Below the pieces are notes generated by a model, which saw nothing but the letters and a program-made list of their open reading frames with translations, was not told where the DNA came from and made no database searches. Positions 16,171 through 29,037 of a stretch of 64,000 nucleotides of DNA are shown piece by piece; positions within the stretch are counted from its first letter, which is position 1; every line of letters begins with the position of its first letter. Both the position numbers and the translations under genes were made by a program. The stretch is from NCBI GenBank assembly GCA_015075545.1, contig JABTUC010000001.1, positions 620,001 to 684,000 of the forward strand, written 5' to 3'. Origin of the DNA: Ideonella sp. (GTDB lineage: Bacteria; Pseudomonadota; Gammaproteobacteria; Burkholderiales; Burkholderiaceae_C).

Positions 16171-16953
16171 CTACCCGACCGGTTCAGCCGCCGCTCGGTA
16201 GTGGTACGAGTAGCCGTCGGCGAACCCGAGCCGGCTGTAAACCGCACGCGCCGGATGATTGGCCGCATCGACCTGAAGGTAGCCGATGCGAGCACCGCGC
16301 TGCCGAGCGCGGTCGAGCAGCAGCGCGCAAAGCTTGCGCGCCCAACCTTGGTTGCGCGATTCGCTGGGGGTGAAGATATCGTACAGGCCCACCATGTCAG
16401 CCTCCGCGGCCGTCTGCCCGCAGGCCAACGGCATGCTCTGCCCGTCGACGCGCAACGCCCAACCTTCGAACGGCACCGGCGACAACTCGAGCCGCTGGGC
16501 GTGCGCTTGCTGCTGCGACAGGGATGAACCCCGAAGTTGCCCCACGGTCTGGGCGAAGGCCGCGTTTCCCAGCCGCTGCAGACTCACTCCGGCGGGCAAC
16601 GGCTCGACCAGCAGGGCCGCGAGATCCGGGTTCACCATGACGCGGGTATCGTCGAATGCCACCAGGCCTCGTGAGTCGAGCCAGGCGTCGAGTTGCGGCG
16701 GCTGCGACCGTGGGGTCACGCGCACGATGAGCGGCAACTGCGCCTGATCGAAGACCTCCTGGCACAACACCAGTCTCTCCTGAAGCGCCAGTTGACCCTG
16801 GGAAACGGCGTTCACGCAGCGTGCCCGCTTCGCCTTGCCAGGCGAGAACCGCACCAGCCAGCCATCGATCCAGCGCTGCTGCGGGGGCGCACTCGCATTC
16901 AAGCCCGCGTCTTCCACGCGGGACAGCAGCGCCGGGAAGACAGAATGCGTCAT
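16171..16953 (-). CDS. GNAT family N-acetyltransferase
   Basis: 260 residues. The C-terminal half is a GNAT domain with the acetyl-CoA loop E-S-R-N-Q-G-W-A-R-K-L and the late NHPARAVYSRLGF motif; the N-terminal half is less conserved. Substrate unknown. Its start overlaps the parA stop (TGATG at 16951-16955), so it is translated with parA, but a role in segregation is not implied. Confidence 0.85.
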   Translation of the reverse strand: MTHSVFPALLSRVEDAGLNASAPPQQRWIDGWLVRFSPGKAKRARCVNAVSQGQLALQERLVLCQEVFDQAQLPLIVRVTPRSQPPQLDAWLDSRGLVAFDDTRVMVNPDLAALLVEPLPAGVSLQRLGNAAFAQTVGQLRGSSLSQQQAHAQRLELSPVPFEGWALRVDGQSMPLACGQTAAEADMVGLYDIFTPSESRNQGWARKLCALLLDRARQRGARIGYLQVDAANHPARAVYSRLGFADGYSYHYRAAAEPVG

Positions 16954-17762
16954 CAGGCGAGTTGCTTGACGCGTGCGACCATCTCGCGGGCGAACTCGAG
17001 GTAGGCCTGGGCGCCTTTCGACGCGGGGTCGAAGACCACCCCCGGTTGCCCGTAGCTCGGCGCCTCGGCGAGACGAACATTGCGCGGTATCACGGCGTCG
17101 AACACCTTGTCACCGAAGTGCCCCTTCAACTGCTCGCTGACCTGTTGCTGCAAGGTGATGCGCGGGTCGTACATCACTCGCAGCAGGCCGATGATCTGCA
17201 ACTCCGGGTTCAGGTTGGCATGCACCTGGCGGATCGTGTTCACCAGGTCGGTCAGGCCCTCGAGTGCGAAGTACTCGCATTGCATGGGCACGATCACGCC
17301 GTGCGCGCTGCACAGGCCGTTCAGCGTGAGCAGGCTGAGGCTCGGCGGGCAGTCGATGACCACGATGTCGTATTCGTCGGCCACAGGTTCCAGGGCTTGT
17401 CGCAGCCGTTGGTCGCGCCGCTCGAGCCCGACCAGCTCAACCTCTGCTCCGGCTAGCTCCCTGTTTGCCCCCAGGACATCGTAACCACCCACTTCGGAAC
17501 GCTGGCGCGCTTCGACAATGGTCGCCGTCTCGAGCAGAACGTCGTAGATCGACAAGCTCAGCGAGCGCTTGTCGACACCGGATCCCATCGTGGCGTTACC
17601 CTGTGGGTCGAGGTCGACCAGCAGGACGCGCTGCCCAACTCTGGCCAGCCCGGCAGCCAGGTTCACCGTCGTCGTGGTCTTGCCGACTCCACCCTTCTGA
17701 TTGGCAACGCAGAAGACCCGAGCTCGCTGCATCGGTGGTCGATCCATGAGGCCTGCTGTCAT
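16953..17762 (-). CDS. parA: Chromosome partitioning ATPase ParA (Soj)
   Basis: 269 residues. The deviant Walker A KGGVGKTTTTVN lies at residues 23-34, with VLLVDLDPQGN and VVIDCPPSL following. ParA forms ATP-dependent dimers on DNA and moves ParB-parS complexes. The ATG at 17762 overlaps the rsmG stop (TGATG), which decides the start; internal ATGs at 17747 and 17732 are possible alternatives. The neighbourhood mnmG-rsmG-parA is the common origin-proximal order. Confidence 0.95.
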   Translation of the reverse strand: MTAGLMDRPPMQRARVFCVANQKGGVGKTTTTVNLAAGLARVGQRVLLVDLDPQGNATMGSGVDKRSLSLSIYDVLLETATIVEARQRSEVGGYDVLGANRELAGAEVELVGLERRDQRLRQALEPVADEYDIVVIDCPPSLSLLTLNGLCSAHGVIVPMQCEYFALEGLTDLVNTIRQVHANLNPELQIIGLLRVMYDPRITLQQQVSEQLKGHFGDKVFDAVIPRNVRLAEAPSYGQPGVVFDPASKGAQAYLEFAREMVARVKQLA

Positions 17763-18433
17763 CACGTGGATCTGCACATCCAAATCAGGTTGCGCTCGGC
17801 GTTCAACCCAGGCACCGTGACAGGTTCCACGTGAAACGCTTGCACGCCTGCCGCCAATCCGGCGATCTCGCTCGAAGGCGATCGACCCTTCATCGCAACC
17901 CACACGCCGTTCGCAGCCAGCAGGTGTTCGGTCGCGGTGACCAGCCCATCGAGCGACGCGAAGGCCCGCGACACCACGACGTCGAACCGCTCGGCCGGCT
18001 GGAACCGTTCGAGCCGCACATGATGCATCACCAGGTTGGCGATACCGGCCTCGTTGGCCGCTTGGCGGGCAAACGCCATCTTCTTTGCCACGGCATCCAC
18101 GGCGGCGACCAACCAGTCAGGCCGCATCACTGCCACGACCACGGCTGGGAATCCCGCTCCCGAGCCCGCATCGAGCACCCGCAGCGACCTTCCCTTCGCA
18201 TATCGGGTCAGAGGCCCCACCAGAGTCATGCTATCGAACACGTGCTGAACCAGAAAATCTGATGGCGACCCTTGCCCACTCAGGTTGTGCACCCGATTCC
18301 AGCGCTCGAGACCGGCGAGGTACGAGAGCAACTGGGTAGCTTGGGCAGCGCTGATCGAGAGACCCAGGCGGCGCGTGCCCTCCACCAACCGCCGCATGAG
18401 TTCCGGATCATGGCTCGGGCTTGATTGAGGCAT
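17762..18433 (-). CDS. rsmG: 16S rRNA (guanine-527 N7)-methyltransferase RsmG
   Basis: 223 residues. The SAM site VLDAGSGAGFPAVV lies near residue 73. It methylates N7 of G527 in the 530 loop of 16S rRNA; loss gives low-level streptomycin resistance in many bacteria. The ATG at 18433 starts 7 bases after the mnmG stop. A parS-like 16-mer is embedded near the 3' end. Confidence 0.94.
   Translation of the reverse strand: MPQSSPSHDPELMRRLVEGTRRLGLSISAAQATQLLSYLAGLERWNRVHNLSGQGSPSDFLVQHVFDSMTLVGPLTRYAKGRSLRVLDAGSGAGFPAVVVAVMRPDWLVAAVDAVAKKMAFARQAANEAGIANLVMHHVRLERFQPAERFDVVVSRAFASLDGLVTATEHLLAANGVWVAMKGRSPSSEIAGLAAGVQAFHVEPVTVPGLNAERNLIWMCRST
17823..17838. promoter_or_regulatory. parS: parS-like ParB binding site within rsmG
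   Basis: GGTTCCACGTGAAACG matches the parS consensus TGTTTCACGTGAAACA at 13 of 16 positions, keeping the central CACGTGAAAC half intact. It lies inside the rsmG coding sequence, about 60 bases from parA. Confidence 0.6.
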
Positions 18434-18440
18434 TTCGGCT

Positions 18441-20408
<1,968 letters not shown>

Positions 20409-20472: not shown

Positions 20473-22632
20473 TCAGTGCGACTTCTGCGAGGCGATGGCG
20501 GTGGCGACGGCGCGCAATTCGTGCGACACGTTGCCCTCGGCAAGCACCACGACCCGGTCGGCGCTGGCGATCGTCTCGGGGCGGTGGGCAACGATCACGC
20601 GGGTCAGCTTCAACTGACGCACGGCCTGATTCACGAGCCGCTCGCGCTCGATGTCGAGGGCGCTGGTGGCCTCGTCGAGAAACAGCACGCGCGGCCGCTT
20701 GTACAGCGCACGCGCCAAGAGAACGCGCTGCTTCTGGCCACCCGACAGCGTGGACCCCATCTCGCCGATCAACGTGTAGTAGCCCATCGGCAGAGCGGCA
20801 ATCTCGTCGTGCACCGCCGCCAATCGCGCGCATTCGACCACGCGCTCCATGTCGGGCCGCGGATCGAAGAAGCTGATGTTGTCGGCCACCGCGCCGGCAA
20901 ACAGCGGCTCGTCCTGCATCACCGTGCCGACCATCGCCCGCCACGCGGCCGAGCCCATCGCTTCGAGCGGCCGCCCACCGACCAACACCTCGCCCTGCAC
21001 CGGCGCCAGGATGCCCAGCATCAGCTTGATCAACGTGGTCTTGCCGCAGCCCGACGGGCCGACGATGGCGATCGATTCACCCGGCTCGATGCTCAGACTC
21101 ACGTTGCGCAGCACATCGCCTTCGCTGTCGGAGTAGCGAAAGCCCACGCCGCGCAACTCGATGCGCGGCGCCGCGGCGGCGTTGTCGACCGGCTGCAATC
21201 CGGGCGCCTGGGCGTGTACTGCTTCCGGCTCGCTGAGCACGATGTCGGCGAGACGCTCGCCCTGCACCTTGAGCATGCCGAGCTCGGCCCACTTGTCGAT
21301 CAGCGCACCGACGCGTTGCGAGAACTGCTCCTTGTAGGCAACGAACGCGAGCAACATGCCCACCGTGAAGGTCTGATCCAGCACGAGTGACGCGCCGATC
21401 CAGATCACGAGTACGCGCTCGAGGCCGAACAACCCTCGGTTGGCAACGGCCAGAGTCACCTCGAGCCGGCGCACCACCATGTCGGCATTCATCGCGTCGA
21501 CCACCAAGTTCATGAAGCGAGCGCGCCGATCGGTCTCGGCCGCGAACAGCTTGATCGCCATCACGCCGCGCAAGGACTCGAGGAAGTGGCTGGTCTTCTT
21601 GGCATCGTGCACCAGCGCCTCCTCGGTGGCACGGCGCATCGGCGCGAACAGCACCCAGCGCAGCAGCGCGTAGACGACGACGAACCCGAGCACCACGGCG
21701 CTCAGCAACAGGCTGTACAACGCCATCATCGCCAGCGTCGTCACCACCAGGGCGCCGTCGAGCAGCACCTCGAGAAAGCTGGTGGTCAGGGTCTTCTGGA
21801 TCTGCTGCACGGCGAAGAAGCGCGACCAGATGTCACCCATGTGCCGCCGCTCGAACCACGCCAGCGGCAGGCGCAGCAGATGGGCGAACACATTGCCCAG
21901 CCACTGCAGGTTGAGGGTCGCCGACAGGTGCAGCACCGCCCACGACCGTATCGCCGCGGTCGCCACCTGGATCGTCACCAGCAGCGCGAAACCGATGCCC
22001 AGCGTCACCAGCAGGTCGCGATCGGCCGTCACCAGAACGTCGTCGACCACCCACTGCAGATAGAACGGGCTCAGCAGCACGAAGAACTCGAGCACCAGCG
22101 CCAGCGCGACGATCTGCGCCAGCGACCGCTTGAGTCCCACCACCCGCCCCAGCAACTGGCGCATCGTGATGCGACGCTGCTCGTCGCGACGCTCGAACCC
22201 TGCGTCGGGGGTCAGCTCCATCGCCGCGCCGGTGAAGTGCCGCGACAGCCGAGCCCATTTCACCCAGTGGGCGCCGCGCGCGGGGTCGTGGATCAATACC
22301 GCGTCGCGGCCGATCTTGACCAGCACGACGAAGTGATTGAAGTCCCAATGCAGGATCGCGGGGAGCGGCAGTTGCCCGAGCTGCTCGGGCTCGGCACGCA
22401 CCGCGCGCGTCTGCAGCTTCAACGCGTGAGCCATGGTGGCCAGGTCGGCCATCGTGGCGCCCTTGAGCGACAGGTTGAAGCGCTGACGCAGCGCCGGCAG
22501 GTCGACGTGCAATCCGTGGGCGGCAGCGACCATCGCCAGACACGCCAAGCCGCATTCGGCGGCCTCGTTCTGCAGGATCACCGGGGTCCCGAGGCCGCCG
22601 AAGCCGATGCGCAACGAGCGGGCGACGGTCAT
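20473..22632 (-). CDS. Peptidase-containing ABC exporter (PCAT, C39 peptidase) of a double-glycine peptide
   Basis: 719 residues in three parts. An N-terminal C39 peptidase has oxyanion Gln21, catalytic Cys27 in ECGLACLAM, His100 and Asp116. A six-helix transmembrane domain spans roughly 165-440. An ATPase domain has Walker A GPSGCGKTT at about 525, LSGGQ at about 629 and VLFLDE at about 649. Such transporters cut peptides after a Gly-Gly motif and export them across the inner membrane. All catalytic residues are present. It follows hlyD by 10 bases, and the 50-residue Gly-Gly peptide gene just upstream is the obvious substrate. The outer-membrane partner would be a TolC encoded elsewhere. 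Confidence 0.93.
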   Translation of the reverse strand: MTVARSLRIGFGGLGTPVILQNEAAECGLACLAMVAAAHGLHVDLPALRQRFNLSLKGATMADLATMAHALKLQTRAVRAEPEQLGQLPLPAILHWDFNHFVVLVKIGRDAVLIHDPARGAHWVKWARLSRHFTGAAMELTPDAGFERRDEQRRITMRQLLGRVVGLKRSLAQIVALALVLEFFVLLSPFYLQWVVDDVLVTADRDLLVTLGIGFALLVTIQVATAAIRSWAVLHLSATLNLQWLGNVFAHLLRLPLAWFERRHMGDIWSRFFAVQQIQKTLTTSFLEVLLDGALVVTTLAMMALYSLLLSAVVLGFVVVYALLRWVLFAPMRRATEEALVHDAKKTSHFLESLRGVMAIKLFAAETDRRARFMNLVVDAMNADMVVRRLEVTLAVANRGLFGLERVLVIWIGASLVLDQTFTVGMLLAFVAYKEQFSQRVGALIDKWAELGMLKVQGERLADIVLSEPEAVHAQAPGLQPVDNAAAAPRIELRGVGFRYSDSEGDVLRNVSLSIEPGESIAIVGPSGCGKTTLIKLMLGILAPVQGEVLVGGRPLEAMGSAAWRAMVGTVMQDEPLFAGAVADNISFFDPRPDMERVVECARLAAVHDEIAALPMGYYTLIGEMGSTLSGGQKQRVLLARALYKRPRVLFLDEATSALDIERERLVNQAVRQLKLTRVIVAHRPETIASADRVVVLAEGNVSHELRAVATAIASQKSH

Positions 22633-22642
22633 CCTCGCGGCC

Positions 22643-23893
22643 TCAGAGACGGCCGGCCACGCCCAGCACCGGCGCGAACAACCACTCGACGAGACGGCGC
22701 CGTTCGAGCATCACGTCGGCGTCGAGCTGCATGCCGGCGGCCAGCGGCTGCTCGCGTCCATACGCCATCACCGACTGCCGCTCCAGGCTCACCGTCACCC
22801 GGTACAGCGGCTCGTCGGGCTTCACGGCCAGCGGCAACGCCGCCAGCTCGCCCGCTTGCAACGGCGTGCTCGACACCTGAATCACCGAACCATCCTGGTG
22901 GCCGAACTTCTGGTACGGGAACGCCGCCACGCGCATGCGCACCGCCTGGTGCGGGCGGATGAAGCCCAGTGCGCTCGAAGGCGCGTAGAGCTGGGCCTGC
23001 AGCCGCGTGTCCGCCGGCACCAGGCTGGCCAACGCCACGTCGGGCGACACGGTCTGCCCGGGCTCGGCCAGCACCGAAGCCAGCGTGCCGTCCTGCGGAG
23101 CACGAATCAGCAGTTCGTGCCTCGCTTCGTTCTCGGCCGACTCCTGCGCCAGCGCCTGGGCCGCGCGCTGCAACTCGCCCGCACGCGTCTGCTCTTGCAG
23201 CGGCAGCTCGCGGCGCTGGCCTTCGAGGGCAGCGATCTCGCGCTGCAGCGTGCTGCGCTGACGCTCGAGCGCAACGAGCTGCGCCCGCAGCGCGAGCACC
23301 TCCTCGCCCTTGCTGTTGACCTGCGCGCCCGACACGAAGCGCTCGTCGCGCAGCGACTCCAGTCGCGTCAAGGTCTGTTGCGCCAGCGCCAGCCGCTGAC
23401 GCTGCAGTTCGGCCTCGGTGCCGATCTGAGCCATCTCCTGGCGCAGTCCGGCCAAGCGTTGCGCCAGCGCCGCTTCCTGCTCGCGGCTCAGCCGCTGCCG
23501 TGCCTGCAAGGTCTCCTGCAGACTCTCCTGGCGCGCACGCAGACTGCTCTGCACCCGCTGCTGCGCCGTGCCGTCGCCCACGTATTGGTCGAGCGTCAGC
23601 ACGAACAACACGTCGCCGGCATGAACCGCCTGGCCTTGTTCGACCCGCCGCTCGGCGACGGTGGCCAGCTGTGGTGCCACCAGCCGGATCCAGCCGCGAT
23701 CGGGCACCAGTACGCCCGACACGTGCGCCTTGCGCGTGTACTCGCCCAGCACCAGCCAGGTGCCGATCGCCACCGCGGCGGCGATCAACACCAGCACCAT
23801 CACCGACAACGATACCGGGCGCACCAGTCGCACCTCGCCCAGCCACTGCTGGCGGTGCGCCTCGAGGGCCTCGTGCCGGAACAGCGGCTTCAT
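22643..23893 (-). CDS. HlyD-family periplasmic adaptor of the peptide exporter
   Basis: 416 residues. One N-terminal membrane segment (about residues 27-48) is followed by a lipoyl-like half, a long alpha-helical hairpin rich in Gln/Arg/Glu (roughly 100-260), the second lipoyl half and a beta-barrel. This is the membrane-fusion protein that bridges an inner-membrane ABC exporter to TolC. It precedes the exporter gene by 10 bases and is separated from the peptide gene by a 102-base spacer that holds a strong hairpin. Confidence 0.92.
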   Translation of the reverse strand: MKPLFRHEALEAHRQQWLGEVRLVRPVSLSVMVLVLIAAAVAIGTWLVLGEYTRKAHVSGVLVPDRGWIRLVAPQLATVAERRVEQGQAVHAGDVLFVLTLDQYVGDGTAQQRVQSSLRARQESLQETLQARQRLSREQEAALAQRLAGLRQEMAQIGTEAELQRQRLALAQQTLTRLESLRDERFVSGAQVNSKGEEVLALRAQLVALERQRSTLQREIAALEGQRRELPLQEQTRAGELQRAAQALAQESAENEARHELLIRAPQDGTLASVLAEPGQTVSPDVALASLVPADTRLQAQLYAPSSALGFIRPHQAVRMRVAAFPYQKFGHQDGSVIQVSSTPLQAGELAALPLAVKPDEPLYRVTVSLERQSVMAYGREQPLAAGMQLDADVMLERRRLVEWLFAPVLGVAGRL

Positions 23894-23921
23894 GACGAAA
23901 GCGGCCCCACAAACGCAGAAC

Positions 23922-23942
23922 GGCCCGGATGTACCGGGCCGC
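23922..23942 (-). terminator. Hairpin between peptide precursor and exporter genes (possible partial terminator)
   Basis: CGGCCCGG (23922-23929) and CCGGGCCG (23935-23942) form a perfect 8-bp stem with a 5-base loop. On the minus strand only scattered T follow (TTCTGCGTTT), so it would terminate weakly or stabilise the upstream RNA. Its position would let the short precursor be made in excess over the exporter. Confidence 0.5.
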
Positions 23943-23995
23943 CGACTTGCCGGCCGGAGGGGGGAAGCGCCGGCGCGTCGAGGAAACTCGGTGCG

Positions 23996-24148
23996 CTACC
24001 AGCCGCCCTTGGGCGACCCCTGGCCACCAGCCACCTGCGCCAGTTGGTGCGGCTCGAGCGGCTGCAGGGCCTTCTTCGGCTCGGCCGCGGCGGCACGCTT
24101 GCCGGCGAACAGGGTCTTGAGCAACGAGGTCTTGCGGGTCTGCTGCAT
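23996..24148 (-). CDS. Double-glycine leader peptide precursor with predicted 8-residue product
   Basis: A 50-codon gene with a GGAG 7 bases before ATG 24148. The N-terminal part is basic (M-Q-Q-T-R-K, K-R-A-A-A-A), and residues 31-42 read LEPHQLAQVAGG. This fits the double-glycine leader pattern exactly: Leu at -12, Leu at -7, Val at -4, Gly-Gly at -2 and -1. Cleavage would release QGSPKGGW. The product has no Cys and only one Ser, and no modifying enzyme or immunity gene lies nearby, so an unmodified secreted peptide is most likely. Role is unknown: signal, toxin or other. Adjacent genes supply the matching C39 exporter and adaptor, and a lux box lies 86 bases upstream. Confidence 0.82.
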   Translation of the reverse strand: MQQTRKTSLLKTLFAGKRAAAAEPKKALQPLEPHQLAQVAGGQGSPKGGW

Positions 24149-24224
24149 GGTGGTCTCCGTTCGGAAATTCGCGCCTGGCCTAAGGCGCATGACGGAGATT
24201 GCAGCAGCCGATGCTCGACCATGA

Positions 24225-24244
24225 AACTGTCAACTCTTACAGGG
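24225..24244 (-). promoter_or_regulatory. lux box upstream of the peptide gene
   Basis: CTGT (24227-24230), 8 bases, then ACAG (24239-24242): the same CTGT-N8-ACAG dyad as the Vibrio fischeri lux box. On the minus strand TGCAAT (24198-24203, 4 of 6 to the -10 consensus) lies about 34 bases from the box centre. That suits a class II promoter with the box overlapping -35 and a start near 24190. Confidence 0.72.
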
Positions 24245-24286
24245 TGACAGATGACACGAATCCGTGCCCAATGGAGCGGGTTTGCG

Positions 24287-25000
24287 TCAGCGGATCAGGC
24301 CCAGACGCAACGCCTTGAGCACCGCCTGGTGCTTGTTGACGCAGCCGAGCTTGCGCATCGCGTTGTTCACGTGCAGGACGGCCGTGCGCTCGGTGATGCC
24401 GAGGATCGACCCGACCTCCCACGCCGTCTTGCCTTCCATCGTCCAGCGCAGCGCCTCCAGTTCGCGCGGCGTCAGCGATGGCGCGTCGGGGCTCGACGCC
24501 GCCGGCACCAGCACCCGCAGCGCCGCATCGAGCGCGTGCACCGCGAACAACTGCAGATCGGCCACCACGCGCGTCAACTCGTGGCGGTCGCTCGGCAGCG
24601 CGCGGTCGCGGTCGACGCCGAGCATGAAGTGCTTGCCCTCGGGCAGGTGCAGCGCCATCGCGATACCGGTGTGGTACCCGTAGCGCGCCTGCTCCTCCCA
24701 CAACTCGCCCTGCCCCTGCGAGGTGTAGGTGCCCTGGTCCCAGATGATCGGCAAGCTCTGCCGGCGGCAATGCTGCATCACCGGGTCGCGCCGCATCGCA
24801 CTGGGATCGTTGAAGACACCGAGAAACTCCCTCGGGGTGTTGTCGACGACTGCGAACTCGCTGCGATCGATGCCCCGATCCACCACAGCCATTGCCGATA
24901 CCGTCTCGAATCCCAAAGCGCGCCCGAAGCGGACGACCTCGTCGCGGAACTCGTCACGGTTCCGAGCCTGCAACACCGATGAATAACCGCCTTGCAGCAT
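24287..25000 (-). CDS. LuxR-family quorum-sensing regulator with autoinducer-binding domain
   Basis: 237 residues. The N-terminal domain (about 15-165) keeps the acyl-homoserine-lactone pocket landmarks Asp72-Pro73 and Trp87 (TraR D70, P71, W85) and a Gly at 112. The usual Trp57 and Tyr61 positions are Phe59 and Phe63. The C-terminal LuxR helix-turn-helix starts at LTPRELEAL (residue 177) with the conserved Glu180, Leu184 and Gly190. No luxI synthase is in the window, so it may be a solo receptor. It is transcribed toward the peptide gene and diverges from the RsaM-like gene, with a lux box between. The start ATG has no clear Shine-Dalgarno. Confidence 0.92.
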   Translation of the reverse strand: MLQGGYSSVLQARNRDEFRDEVVRFGRALGFETVSAMAVVDRGIDRSEFAVVDNTPREFLGVFNDPSAMRRDPVMQHCRRQSLPIIWDQGTYTSQGQGELWEEQARYGYHTGIAMALHLPEGKHFMLGVDRDRALPSDRHELTRVVADLQLFAVHALDAALRVLVPAASSPDAPSLTPRELEALRWTMEGKTAWEVGSILGITERTAVLHVNNAMRKLGCVNKHQAVLKALRLGLIR

Positions 25001-25037
25001 GTGATCGAGTCGGCGTCAACGCGCCGCGCACACGCAG

Positions 25038-25057
25038 ACCTGAAAGGTCTTACAGAT
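25038..25057 (+). promoter_or_regulatory. lux box between luxR and the RsaM-like gene
   Basis: ACCTGAAAGGTCTTACAGAT agrees with the V. fischeri lux box ACCTGTAGGATCGTACAGGT at 15 of 20 positions, including ACCTG and ACAG. A weak -10 (AACACT, 25080-25085) lies about 35 bases from the centre toward the plus-strand gene. No comparable hexamer is seen toward luxR, so activation of the rightward gene is more likely. Confidence 0.7.
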
Positions 25058-25114
25058 TTCAAACGGTTGCCGCTTGTCGAACACTAGCCGACACAGCCAA
25101 CAACGAGTCGCATC

Positions 25115-25513
25115 ATGCACACCAAGACCCACGCCTGTCCCCCCTGGACCGTTCGCGCCTGGCCACCGCTATTGTGGCAGGTTGACAAGCTGCAGCCACT
25201 GCGGCTGCAGCACCTGGGCACGCGCGTCACGAACCCGGGCGACCAGATCTCGCGCACGTCCGGGCAGACCATCTGGGCGGCGGCGGCCGACGATGGCCAG
25301 GCCGGCATGGCCTGGGACTGGATCCAGCTGTCGGCCGGGGTGGTGGCGATGGCCGACCCGCTGTCGGTGATCACCAACGTGCACCTGGTCGGCGCCGACG
25401 GCGACTCGCTCGGCCCGCTGGAGTCGCTGCGCCGCCTCAACGAGGTGGTGCACGCGCTGCCGTGGCAGGGCGAAGTCGAGCGCGTGCTCGGGGTCGCCGT
25501 GTCAGCGGCGTAG
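25115..25513 (+). CDS. RsaM-like (DUF4902-like) quorum-sensing modulator, tentative
   Basis: 132 residues, no signal peptide. The segment G-M-A-W-D-W followed by a beta-rich stretch, the TNVHLVGADGDSLGP region and a terminal ALPWQGEVERVL resemble RsaM/DUF4902 proteins. Those are small regulators found beside luxI/luxR genes in Burkholderia and Pseudomonas, where they repress or fine-tune AHL signalling. The identification comes from remembered family features, not a search. The divergent LuxR gene and the lux box between them support it. It ends 11 bases from the convergent natB gene. Confidence 0.55.
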   Translation: MHTKTHACPPWTVRAWPPLLWQVDKLQPLRLQHLGTRVTNPGDQISRTSGQTIWAAAADDGQAGMAWDWIQLSAGVVAMADPLSVITNVHLVGADGDSLGPLESLRRLNEVVHALPWQGEVERVLGVAVSAA

Positions 25514-26688: not shown

Positions 26689-27449
26689 GCGCCGGGCCCC
26701 CCACCGTCGCCGAAGGCCAGGCTGACGAAGGCCTGCTCGAAGTCGTCATGCCCGCTCGCGCGGCACAACTCGTCGACGCTGCCCTCGGCCACCGCACGCC
26801 CGTGCGCCATCACCACCACGTGGTCGCACAGGCGCTGCACCTCCTGCATGATGTGGGTGCAGAACACGATGCACTTGCCGTGCTCGTCGCGCAGCCGGCG
26901 CAGCGCCAGGCGCAAGCCGCGGATCGACTGCACGTCCAGGCCGTTGGTCGGCTCGTCGAGCACGATGTTCGGCGGGTCGTGCACCAGCGCGCGCGCCAGC
27001 GCGGTCTTCATGCGCTCGCCCTGGCTGAAGCCGGCGGTGCGTCGATCGAGCAAGGGCTCGAAGTCGAGCGTGCGCGCCAGCATCTGCGCACGCGCCGCTG
27101 CGGCGTCGCCTGCGATGCCGTGCAATCGGGCGTGGTAGACGATGTTCTCGCGCGCCGTCAGCCGCGGGTACAGGCCGCGCGCGTCCGACAGCACCCCCAG
27201 CCGCGCCAGCGCCGCGCGCGGCCGTGCCGCCACGTCGATGCCGTCGACCTCGATACGGCCGTCGTCGGGCGCGAGCAATGCCGCCGTCATGCGCAACAAG
27301 GTGGTCTTGCCGGCGCCATTGGGGCCGAGCACCGCGGTGATGCAGCCATCGTCCGCCGCGAACGTCACGCCCGCCACGGCTTCGACGATCCGCCGACCGC
27401 GACCGCGCCCTTGCACGAAGCGCTTGTGCAGTCGCTCGACCCGGATCAT
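26685..27449 (-). CDS. ABC transporter ATP-binding protein, NatA-like
   Basis: 254 residues with Walker A GPNGAGKTT near 43, an unusual signature FSQGERMK in place of LSGGQ (common in NatA-type exporters), and Walker B IVLDEPTNGLD. It would power the NatB-like permease. Its start overlaps the hydrolase stop by 4 bases (27446-27449), forming a coupled three-gene operon hydrolase-natA-natB. Confidence 0.9.
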   Translation of the reverse strand: MIRVERLHKRFVQGRGRGRRIVEAVAGVTFAADDGCITAVLGPNGAGKTTLLRMTAALLAPDDGRIEVDGIDVAARPRAALARLGVLSDARGLYPRLTARENIVYHARLHGIAGDAAAARAQMLARTLDFEPLLDRRTAGFSQGERMKTALARALVHDPPNIVLDEPTNGLDVQSIRGLRLALRRLRDEHGKCIVFCTHIMQEVQRLCDHVVVMAHGRAVAEGSVDELCRASGHDDFEQAFVSLAFGDGGGPGA

Positions 27450-28915
27450 CGGGCCGGCCCCGTCGCGGCCTGGCCGAGCGGCACGAACACGCGGGGCCGC
27501 GGCAGCGCCTGCGCGCAGCGCGCGTCGACCCGCAGCGCCGTGTCATCGTCGTTTGCCTCGATGAACCGCACCACCGCGTCGCGCAGGCACGGCAGCGTCA
27601 TGACGCCATGACCGGCGTTGGGCACGACCGTGTGTCGCGCCTTGGGCCCCAGCGCGCGCGCGATCCGCTCGCCGTGGCGCGGCGGCGTCGCCGGATCGGC
27701 CGCCCCCGACAGCAGCCAGGTCGCCGCCGGCGCGGGGGGCGTGGCATAGAACCCTGCGGGCACGTCGCCACGCGGCCAGGCCGCGCAGACCTGTTCGTAG
27801 AAGTGCGCGAAGGCATTGCCGAACTGAGCGCCCGGGGTATCGGTCGAGCGACCCAGTCGCGGCACGTCCTCGGCGCACACCACCGAGAAATGCATGCCGC
27901 TGTACAGCATGGCCCCGGGGCTCGTCATCGCCGCGGCCAGCCCGGCCAGGGCCTCGAAGCGGCCCGCCGCCGCTTCGGCGATGGCCGCCGGCAGCACGGC
28001 CGCCAGTGCCGGGACATACAGCGGCGAACGCACCATGCCCAGCACTTCGTCGCGCATCAGCCGCACCGATTGGCGCTGGCCCGTCAGCGGGTCGACAAGT
28101 TGCACCTGCTGCGGCAGCGCGTCGAGCACACCCTGCCACGATGCGCGCAGGCGCGGATGGCGCGCACCACAGTCGGCGTCGGCCGCGCACCAGTCGAACA
28201 AGGCGTCGAGCGCGGCCTGATTGTCGGTCGAGAACGACGCCGGCAGCGCCATGTCGGCCGCCGCCACGCCGTCGAGCACCGCGCGGCGCACCGAGCGCGG
28301 AAACTGCCGCATGTACTCCAGCGCCGCGCGCGTGCCGTACGAGGCCCCCACGAGGTCGATGGTCGGCGCGCCGAGCGCGGCGCGCACCGCCTCGACATCG
28401 CCCATCGCGATCGACGTGGTGAAGCGCCGCAAGTCGCCGTACGGCAGACGCATCAGTTGCTCGCGGCACGACGCCAACTGCGCCAATTGCCGCTGCGGGT
28501 CGAGTTGCTCGGCCAGCGGGAGCAGCACGCGGCCATCGTCTGCGCAGCGCAGCGGCGCGCTGCGGCCGGTGCCGCGCTGGTCGATGAACACGAGGTCGCG
28601 CCGGTTGTTCAGCCGCCCGAACTGCGCCGCCAGCGGACCGGCCAGTTCGGTCGCGCTCTGCCCCGGGCCGCCGGCGAAGAAGAACACCGCGTCGGGCAGC
28701 TTGTGCTGCGCCAGCGCTGGCAGCACCGCGAAGTGCACGTCGATCTTCGTGCCATCGGGCTGCGCGGGATCGAGCGCACGCCGCACGCTGCCACACAGCG
28801 CGTCGTGGGTCACGCCTTCGAGGCGGCACGGCGCCAGCGAGGCCGGTTGCGCGGCCACCGCGAACACCAGGCCGGCCAGGCCCACGGCACCACGCAACCT
28901 CCACCGATTCGTCAT
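27446..28915 (-). CDS. Secreted alpha/beta hydrolase, TAP-like / proline iminopeptidase family
   Basis: 489 residues with an N-terminal signal peptide (hydrophobic 10-22, then AAQPA). The oxyanion segment FFFAGGPGQSATE is near residue 78, the nucleophile elbow GASYG at 190-194 (Ser192), and a C-terminal TAP-like domain ends with a G-H-G-V-M-T-L-P catalytic-His segment. Family members release amino acids or peptides from N-termini. It is probably periplasmic. The first gene of an operon with a NatAB-type exporter. Confidence 0.85.
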   Translation of the reverse strand: MTNRWRLRGAVGLAGLVFAVAAQPASLAPCRLEGVTHDALCGSVRRALDPAQPDGTKIDVHFAVLPALAQHKLPDAVFFFAGGPGQSATELAGPLAAQFGRLNNRRDLVFIDQRGTGRSAPLRCADDGRVLLPLAEQLDPQRQLAQLASCREQLMRLPYGDLRRFTTSIAMGDVEAVRAALGAPTIDLVGASYGTRAALEYMRQFPRSVRRAVLDGVAAADMALPASFSTDNQAALDALFDWCAADADCGARHPRLRASWQGVLDALPQQVQLVDPLTGQRQSVRLMRDEVLGMVRSPLYVPALAAVLPAAIAEAAAGRFEALAGLAAAMTSPGAMLYSGMHFSVVCAEDVPRLGRSTDTPGAQFGNAFAHFYEQVCAAWPRGDVPAGFYATPPAPAATWLLSGAADPATPPRHGERIARALGPKARHTVVPNAGHGVMTLPCLRDAVVRFIEANDDDTALRVDARCAQALPRPRVFVPLGQAATGPAR

Positions 28916-29037
28916 CGGCGCGCATTGTCCACGCGCGGCACGGACGGCGCGCGCATGCCCCGCTGCCCGGCCGCGAATTTCAATCCCAGCTATGCTCCCG
29001 CATACCTTCGCTGCGCATTGAACAGGAGAACTCATCC

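What the first reader, a model, noticed from the sequence alone, without database searches (positions are those of the whole stretch)
20473..25513. Quorum-sensing-linked export locus for a tiny Gly-Gly peptide
A LuxR receptor, an RsaM-like gene, two lux boxes, a 50-residue Gly-Gly precursor, an HlyD adaptor and a complete C39-peptidase exporter lie in five kilobases. Seen: the gene order, the boxes, the catalytic residues. Known: C39 exporters cut after Gly-Gly; LuxR proteins bind CTGT-N8-ACAG. Inferred: density-controlled secretion of an 8-residue peptide. No modification or immunity gene is present, which argues against a classic bacteriocin and for a signal or other small effector. I do not recall such a set being described.
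Basis: partly seen in the sequence, partly recalled or inferred. Interest (0 to 1): 0.85.

Follow-up and report, generated by a model that had tools for sequence, protein, structure and literature searches.

The report
LuxR-linked short-peptide signalling locus
A quorum-sensing-type switch with no known signal-making enzyme sits, in many related bacteria, next to a gene for a tiny peptide ending in tryptophan; the peptide is probably secreted and may itself be the missing signal.

Summary
In detail: C39 exporter, HlyD, 50-residue Gly-Gly precursor, LuxR, RsaM and an exact lux box. The locus is syntenic in 5 of 6 held same-genus genomes. It belongs to a family-wide module: RsaM homologues occur in 105 of 399 family genomes; in 83 of 95 readable RsaM-LuxR loci a small ORF with a P-x(2-4)-W core follows luxR (strict rule 77, controls 2 and about 4). 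Cores are often tandem, kept by synonymous change. Exporter-linked precursors carry GG/GA leaders (61 of 61); eleven loci without a linked exporter encode leaderless mini-ORFs with the same ending, so the core follows LuxR, not the exporter. The LuxRs mostly lack the lactone-binding Trp (W in 6 of 82); luxI was found in 0 of 6 genus genomes and 11 of 76 other system genomes. Best reading: the peptide is this LuxR's own signal. The module rests on comparison; the ligand is inferred, and AHL control of a secreted effector is not excluded. Ten searches of open papers showed no description.

The parts
20473..22632 (-). C39-peptidase ABC exporter, 719 aa; predicted to cut after Gly-Gly and export the peptide
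   Evidence: Pfam Peptidase_C39 1.9e-35, ABC_membrane 7.2e-36, ABC_tran 6.3e-32; 79-91% identical orthologues in 4 other genus genomes
22643..23893 (-). HlyD-family adaptor, 416 aa
   Evidence: HlyD_3 2e-15; 69-91% in 4 other genus genomes
23910..23979 (-). conserved two-stem-loop RNA element between precursor and hlyD; first loop exposes CUUCCCCCCUCCG (complementary to a Shine-Dalgarno site)
   Evidence: 88-97% identical in the 4 other genus genomes with the locus; folds in all five; covariation slight; strong model matches only in the genus
23996..24148 (-). 50-residue Gly-Gly precursor; predicted product QGSPKGGW, core SPKGGW
   Evidence: translation; relatives in 4 other genus genomes; family-wide core P-x(2-4)-W
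24227..24242 (-). lux box 1, CTGTAAGAGTTGACAG, before the precursor
   Evidence: identical in the five genus loci; at least 13 of 14 fixed positions in 63 of 83 peptide loci
24287..25000 (-). LuxR-family receptor-regulator, 237 aa, with F60/F64 (LasR numbering) in the ligand site
   Evidence: Autoind_bind and GerE; residues; model pLDDT 90.8, nearest QscR
25040..25055 (-). lux box 2, CTGTAAGACCTTTCAG (one base off CTGT-N8-ACAG), between luxR and rsaM
   Evidence: conserved in the five genus loci with one variable base
25115..25513 (+). RsaM homologue, 132 aa, divergent from luxR
   Evidence: DUF4902 below cut-off; profile and fold both pick 4o2h

Best explanation
A self-contained short-peptide signalling module. 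LuxR (modulated by RsaM) binds box 1 and switches on the precursor together with hlyD and the C39 exporter. The C39 domain cuts after Gly-Gly and the peptide leaves as QGSPKGGW (core SPKGGW). The peptide, taken back into the cell or acting on the producer, is the LuxR's own ligand in place of an acyl-homoserine lactone: an encoded peptide autoinducer read by a LuxR-family receptor. Some lineages lack both exporter and leader and encode the bare C-terminal peptide. SHOWN by sequence comparison: the module, its conservation, the core motif, the leader-exporter link, rarity of luxI, the altered ligand site. INFERRED: LuxR-box binding, cleavage, secretion, re-entry and peptide-LuxR binding. I hold the module claim at about 0.95 and the autoinducer step at about 0.5; the confidence below is for the whole mechanism.
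For: (1) P-x(2-4)-W ORF directly after luxR in 77 of 95 loci by a strict rule against 2 of 95 reverse complements and a mean of 4.15 of 95 in 20 shuffles; 83 of 95 with six added by eye. (2) The peptide stays with LuxR when the exporter is not linked: 22 of 31 such loci have it, 11 of them read by me as leaderless (e.g. MICLPRVGW, MQVLLPRNAW). The sister group of the window's genus on the LuxR tree (G011, G356, G296; the eight rows together 97/90) has no exporter of this type in the genome and keeps LPRAGW/LPRNAW. (3) GG leader goes with a C39 exporter in the genome: 10 of 10 GG-type genomes without a linked exporter against 3 of 10 leaderless ones (Fisher 0.003). (4) Tandem cores in 23 of 83 precursors; 30 of 33 copy pairs have identical residues and 22 of these differ only by synonymous bases. 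(5) Lux box before the peptide, 13 or 14 of 14 positions in 63 of 83; near-unique in genus genomes. (6) Position 60 is W in 6 of 82 peptide-linked LuxRs, W60 and Y64 together in 0 of 82, against 4 of 4 LuxRs beside luxI in the same family keeping both. (7) luxI in 0 of 6 and 11 of 76 system genomes. (8) Precedent for a LuxR answering a peptide: PipR (passages of PMC4981722).
Against: No binding or expression data. No peptide importer is among the recurrent neighbours I found. Asp73, Pro74, Trp88 and Gly113 of AHL receptors are kept in 80, 82, 78 and 82 of 82, and the model's nearest solved structures are AHL receptors. W57Y/F also occurs in a Burkholderia LuxR-solo group of unknown ligand (passages of PMC4338825). 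Core and ligand-domain distances do not clearly co-vary beyond the DNA-binding domain: partial r 0.169, 1 of 2000 permutations, on 82 loci, but 0.097, 156 of 2000, after thinning to 59. Four of 95 loci have no recognisable peptide and 7 have W-less ends. Three leaderless genomes still have an exporter. PF00765 does not cover other AHL synthase families, which were not searched.
Confidence: 0.5

Rival explanations
1. AHL-controlled secretion of a peptide effector: LuxR senses AHLs, its own species' or its neighbours', and the Gly-Gly peptide is the output (antimicrobial, host-directed or metal-binding), not the LuxR ligand.
For: AHL-receptor fold with most pocket residues kept; canonical lux box; luxI in 11 of 76 system genomes; C39 exporters commonly serve bacteriocins (general knowledge).
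Against: Lactone-contacting Trp replaced in 76 of 82; no luxI in the genus; leaderless forms without exporter keep the same core; no immunity or modification gene among recurrent neighbours of at least 120 aa.
Confidence: 0.22
2. LuxR senses an unknown non-AHL ligand and the peptide is a secreted product of another use (as RaxX is for Xanthomonas), merely co-regulated with its exporter.
For: Altered ligand site; GG-leader/C39 export of non-signal peptides is known (RaxX, passages of PMC6637879); in G098 two further near-boxes precede other export genes.
Against: Does not explain why the peptide stays next to luxR in exporter-less, leaderless lineages.
Confidence: 0.14
3. The short peptide acts inside the producing cell, as a ligand or partner of LuxR or RsaM, or in cis as a regulatory leader peptide; export is a later addition or a disposal route.
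For: Leaderless mini-ORFs of 9-31 residues directly after luxR.
Against: 61 of 61 exporter-linked precursors have an export leader; up to five tandem cores with spacers fit processing and release better than a cis-acting leader peptide.
Confidence: 0.12
4. Chance ORF: the small gene is not real.
For: Short ORF without Pfam or NCBIfam match.
Against: 77 of 95 against 2 and about 4 of 95 in controls; synonymous-only change between tandem cores.
Confidence: 0.02

Closest known systems
Divergent rsaM-luxR solo arrangement, type 6a of the RsaM review (PMC10710839; passages and section 4 read)
   Same: RsaM divergent from a LuxR without linked luxI, in genera such as Pelomonas, Kinneretia, Albitalea, Xenophilus
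   Different: The review mentions no peptide (word absent from its main text) and, in the section read, no exporter; here a tryptophan-ended peptide gene follows luxR in 83 of 95 loci
PAB LuxR solos, PipR of Pseudomonas sp. GM79 (PMC4981722; passages read)
   Same: LuxR-family protein with an altered ligand site, no AHL response, answers peptide-like compounds
   Different: PipR's signal comes from plants or hydrolysates and its neighbours are an importer and peptidases; here the candidate peptide is encoded beside luxR with an exporter
RRNPP peptide quorum sensing of Bacillota (PMC10075063; passages read)
   Same: Two adjacent genes: a small propeptide and its candidate intracellular receptor
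   Different: Receptor here is LuxR-type, not RRNPP; leader is Gly-Gly with a C39 exporter; Gram-negative host
RaxX-RaxAB of Xanthomonas (PMC6637879; passages read)
   Same: Small precursor with a double-glycine leader removed by an ABC exporter with an adaptor
   Different: RaxX is a longer, sulfated peptide with a linked sulfotransferase; the passages seen name no LuxR or RsaM

Membership tests
AHL quorum-sensing LuxR/LuxI pair | LuxR with autoinducer-binding and GerE domains | tested here: met
   Autoind_bind 1.6e-24, GerE 2.1e-15
AHL quorum-sensing LuxR/LuxI pair | cognate LuxI (PF00765) | tested here: not met
   0 of 6 genus genomes (its 14 control genomes did not ring); the same search finds luxI in 10 of 100 family genomes over cut-off. 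The window genome is 85% complete.
AHL quorum-sensing LuxR/LuxI pair | WYDPWG ligand motif | tested here: not met
   window LuxR has F-F-D-P-W-G; W60 and Y64 together in 0 of 82
AHL quorum-sensing LuxR/LuxI pair | response to AHL | not testable with these tools
   needs a reporter assay
LuxR solo | LuxR without LuxI nearby or in the genome | tested here: met
RsaM | RsaM sequence and fold | tested here: met
   profile hit to 4o2h E 3.5e-5; fold E 5.2e-6; single-sequence Pfam score below cut-off; 24 of 33 relatives match DUF4902 at E 0.01
Double-glycine (C39) exported peptides | GG leader with consensus hydrophobic positions and a C39 exporter | tested here: met
Double-glycine (C39) exported peptides | cleavage and export shown | not testable with these tools
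   needs mass spectrometry
Bacteriocin or modified RiPP locus | linked immunity or modification gene | tested here: not met
   none among recurrent neighbours (mnmG, ABC-2 pair, alpha/beta hydrolase, GST, thioredoxin-like); neighbours under 120 aa were not clustered
RRNPP quorum sensing | RRNPP (HTH-TPR) receptor | tested here: not met
   receptor is Autoind_bind plus GerE

The most novel reading that the evidence does not exclude
A new class of Gram-negative quorum sensing: a LuxR-family receptor whose autoinducer is a ribosomally made, tryptophan-ended peptide encoded next to it (xPxxxW, released from Gly-Gly precursors by a C39 exporter or made directly as a 9-31 residue ORF), under RsaM modulation, in 34 genera of one betaproteobacterial family among those sampled.
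Probability: 0.5. Interest if true: 0.95.

Novelty: new variant of a known kind. Interest (0 to 1): 0.85.

Why it matters
LuxR proteins without luxI are common in Proteobacteria and most have no known ligand. This module offers an encoded candidate ligand for one large group, with a natural set of variants (more than 80 cores, leaderless and tandem forms) that makes peptide-receptor specificity directly testable. If true, the LuxR family would read encoded peptide autoinducers as well as lactones, and RsaM would have a role outside AHL circuits. It also points to a family of very short peptides, down to 9 residues, that gene finders are likely to miss.

Tried and rejected
G358 (L010, L017): a weak match to the peptide (E 1.5e-4) lies inside a FleN/MinD-like ORF with no locus around it; dropped. 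RNA-model hits outside the five genus loci (at most 35.6 bits against 90-102), one of them in G098, were taken as noise and not inspected one by one. Rfam gave nothing useful for the element. Covariation of the element is slight. CCTCC occurs in the space between peptide and hlyD of a few other genera, but by eye not in that two-hairpin arrangement. The Mantel test is inconclusive after thinning. Exporter paralogues of G098 and G336 (50-53%) lie beside other, larger Gly-Gly ORFs, not this peptide. The plasmid collection holds no LuxR relative at E 1e-40. In 300 genomes of the order the RsaM profile matched 3, two of the same family; the third, G509, has W and Y at the ligand site, no HlyD or C39 match in 16 kb, and no box or peptide that I could see within 480 nt of luxR.

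Rows dropped or added: one search lists 125 RsaM places; I examined 105 (5 genus loci, all 83 of the next tier down to E 4.4e-28, 17 of 37 weaker ones). Four had no LuxR of 70 bits in the stretch (L140, L145, L157, L184) and 6 had under 330 nt after luxR, leaving 95. Six peptides (L147, L166, L167, L168, L173, L176) were added by eye to the 77 of the strict rule; in L168 and L176 the core is not C-terminal. I changed the script's leaderless set: G090 moved out (leader ends GS), G011 moved in (short ATG start). L207's core (PPPPPTW) is doubtful. L171 counts as exporter-linked only through a 37% HlyD and is doubtful; its RsaM-side LuxR has a GPYTTW peptide not in the 83. Where a locus has several LuxRs, searches take the best-scoring one, which may not be the adjacent one. 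Several weaker-tier LuxRs have long branches. Neighbour counts are lower bounds: its ORF picker found LuxR itself in only 59 of 83 loci.
Full report
Observation. The window carries, on the minus strand, luxR (24287-25000), a 50-residue Gly-Gly precursor (23996-24148), hlyD (22643-23893) and a C39-peptidase ABC exporter (20473-22632), with an rsaM-like gene (25115-25513) divergent from luxR. An exact lux box precedes the precursor and one with a single departure lies between luxR and rsaM. RsaM is below the Pfam cut-off alone, but profile and fold searches both pick the solved RsaM homologue 4o2h.

Genus level. Of 6 held genomes of the genus, 5 have the whole locus in the same order between mnmG and an ABC-2 transporter pair. 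The sixth, G273, is 82% complete and has only a 33% exporter hit. Predicted products are QGSPKGGW, QGLPKGGW, GGLPRGGWG, VGETNLPKSGW and ATESPKGTW. Box 1 is identical in all five. Allowing one mismatch it occurs once in each of four genomes and three times in G098, where the two further, one-mismatch sites lie about 80 nt before an HlyD gene and about 40 nt before an exporter of 33% identity, at two other loci; the reversed pattern gives none. By its boxes, then, this LuxR looks devoted to export loci; binding is not shown.

Family level. RsaM relatives occur in 105 of 399 sampled family genomes, 40 of 141 genera; in 300 genomes sampled from the order the profile matched 3, two of them of the same family. 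I examined 105 of the 125 places listed. In 95 loci with a LuxR and at least 330 nt after it, a strict rule (Shine-Dalgarno-like site, at least 9 aa, ending P-x(2-4)-W with up to 3 more residues) finds an ORF in 77, against 2 of 95 reverse complements and 1-9 (mean 4.15) of 95 in 20 shuffles. With six more added by eye it is 83 of 95, in 81 genomes. The core profile over the 83: W 83, P at -5 77, K or R at -4 53, G or T at -2 69. Of the 12 others, one (L171) has GPYTTW behind its RsaM-side LuxR, seven have related W-less ends (LPRVGG twice, LPRNGG, FPRVGF twice, LPRLGG, VPRFGG) and four have nothing I recognise. The 76 system genomes outside the window's genus belong to 33 genera.

Leader, exporter, core. 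Sixty-four loci have an HlyD gene on the same strand after luxR; 61 of them have the peptide, all 61 with a GG/GA leader. The leader consensus is L-12, L-7, V-4, G-2, G/A-1 over 72 precursors. Of 22 peptides in the 31 loci without a linked exporter I read 11 as GG-type and 11 as leaderless, the shortest being MICLPRVGW and MQVLLPRNAW. A C39 exporter (E at most 1e-100) is found elsewhere in 10 of 10 GG-type genomes and 3 of 10 leaderless ones (Fisher 0.003; related genomes are not independent). On the LuxR tree the leaderless state needs at least 5 changes, and the sister group of the window's genus (G011, G356, G296; the eight rows together 97/90) has neither exporter nor leader but keeps LPRAGW/LPRNAW. 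So the core stays with LuxR when export is absent. Twenty-three of 83 precursors carry two to five cores; in 30 of 33 copy pairs the residues are identical, and 22 of these 30 differ only by synonymous bases.

Receptor. [quoted passage not shown] passages of PMC4414361) is W in only 6 of 82 peptide-linked LuxRs (Y 44, F 31, M 1); residue 64 is variable; Asp73 is kept in 80, Pro74 and Gly113 in 82, Trp88 in 78. Four of four LuxRs beside luxI genes in the same family keep both W and Y (read by eye). luxI (PF00765) was not found in 6 genus genomes and is over cut-off in 11 of 76 other system genomes, close to the family sample (10 of 100). Other synthase families were not searched. The model of the window LuxR is confident (pLDDT 90.8) and nearest to AHL receptors such as QscR, so the fold does not decide the ligand.

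Mechanism. The simplest account of a peptide that stays beside LuxR with or without export machinery, behind LuxR's presumed box, with an altered ligand site and usually no lactone synthase, is that the peptide is LuxR's ligand. That a LuxR-family protein can answer peptides has precedent in PipR, which needs an importer and answers Ser-His-Ser at high concentration (PMC4981722, passages). The step is inferred. Co-variation of core and ligand domain is inconclusive. AHL-controlled effector secretion and an intracellular role remain possible.

Known work. The divergent rsaM-luxR solo arrangement is described as type 6a, in a paper whose main text does not hold the word peptide (PMC10710839, passages and section 4). 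The in silico section of the LuxR-solo review names no such subgroup (PMC10134790, outline, passages, section 10). Passages only were read of PMC4338825, PMC10075063, PMC5872303 and PMC6637879. Ten searches of the open-access library listed no paper describing the module; subscription papers and preprints were not searched. I rate the system a new variant of LuxR-solo signalling; if the peptide proves to be the ligand it would be a new class.

Noticed in passing
window 23910-23979 (-): Two-hairpin RNA element between precursor and hlyD with an anti-Shine-Dalgarno C-rich loop, 88-97% conserved in the 4 other genus genomes with the locus; possible attenuator or released small RNA.
   Followed up: partly
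L053 8763-9408, 10833-10848; L218 1501-1516 (G098): Two further one-mismatch lux boxes in G098 stand just before an HlyD gene and before a 33% exporter; near the first lie larger Gly-Gly ORFs.
   Followed up: partly
window 27446-29035 (-): Alpha/beta hydrolase with a TAP-like domain, a neighbour in at least 42 of 83 loci; a peptidase-like enzyme near a peptide locus, perhaps only by conserved synteny.
   Followed up: no
L196, L199, L204, L209, L211: A more distant LuxR group, most with Tyr at LasR position 88, is followed by tiny ORFs ending LPRNGG, FPRVGF, LPRLGG or VPRFGG, without Trp.
   Followed up: partly
L135, L136, L156, L171: Three or four LuxR-like genes in a row or close together near one RsaM.
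   Followed up: no
window 16953-20408: ParA-like gene, rsmG and mnmG lie just outside the locus; mnmG is a neighbour in at least 46 of 83 loci, so the module sits in a conserved chromosomal slot.
   Followed up: partly
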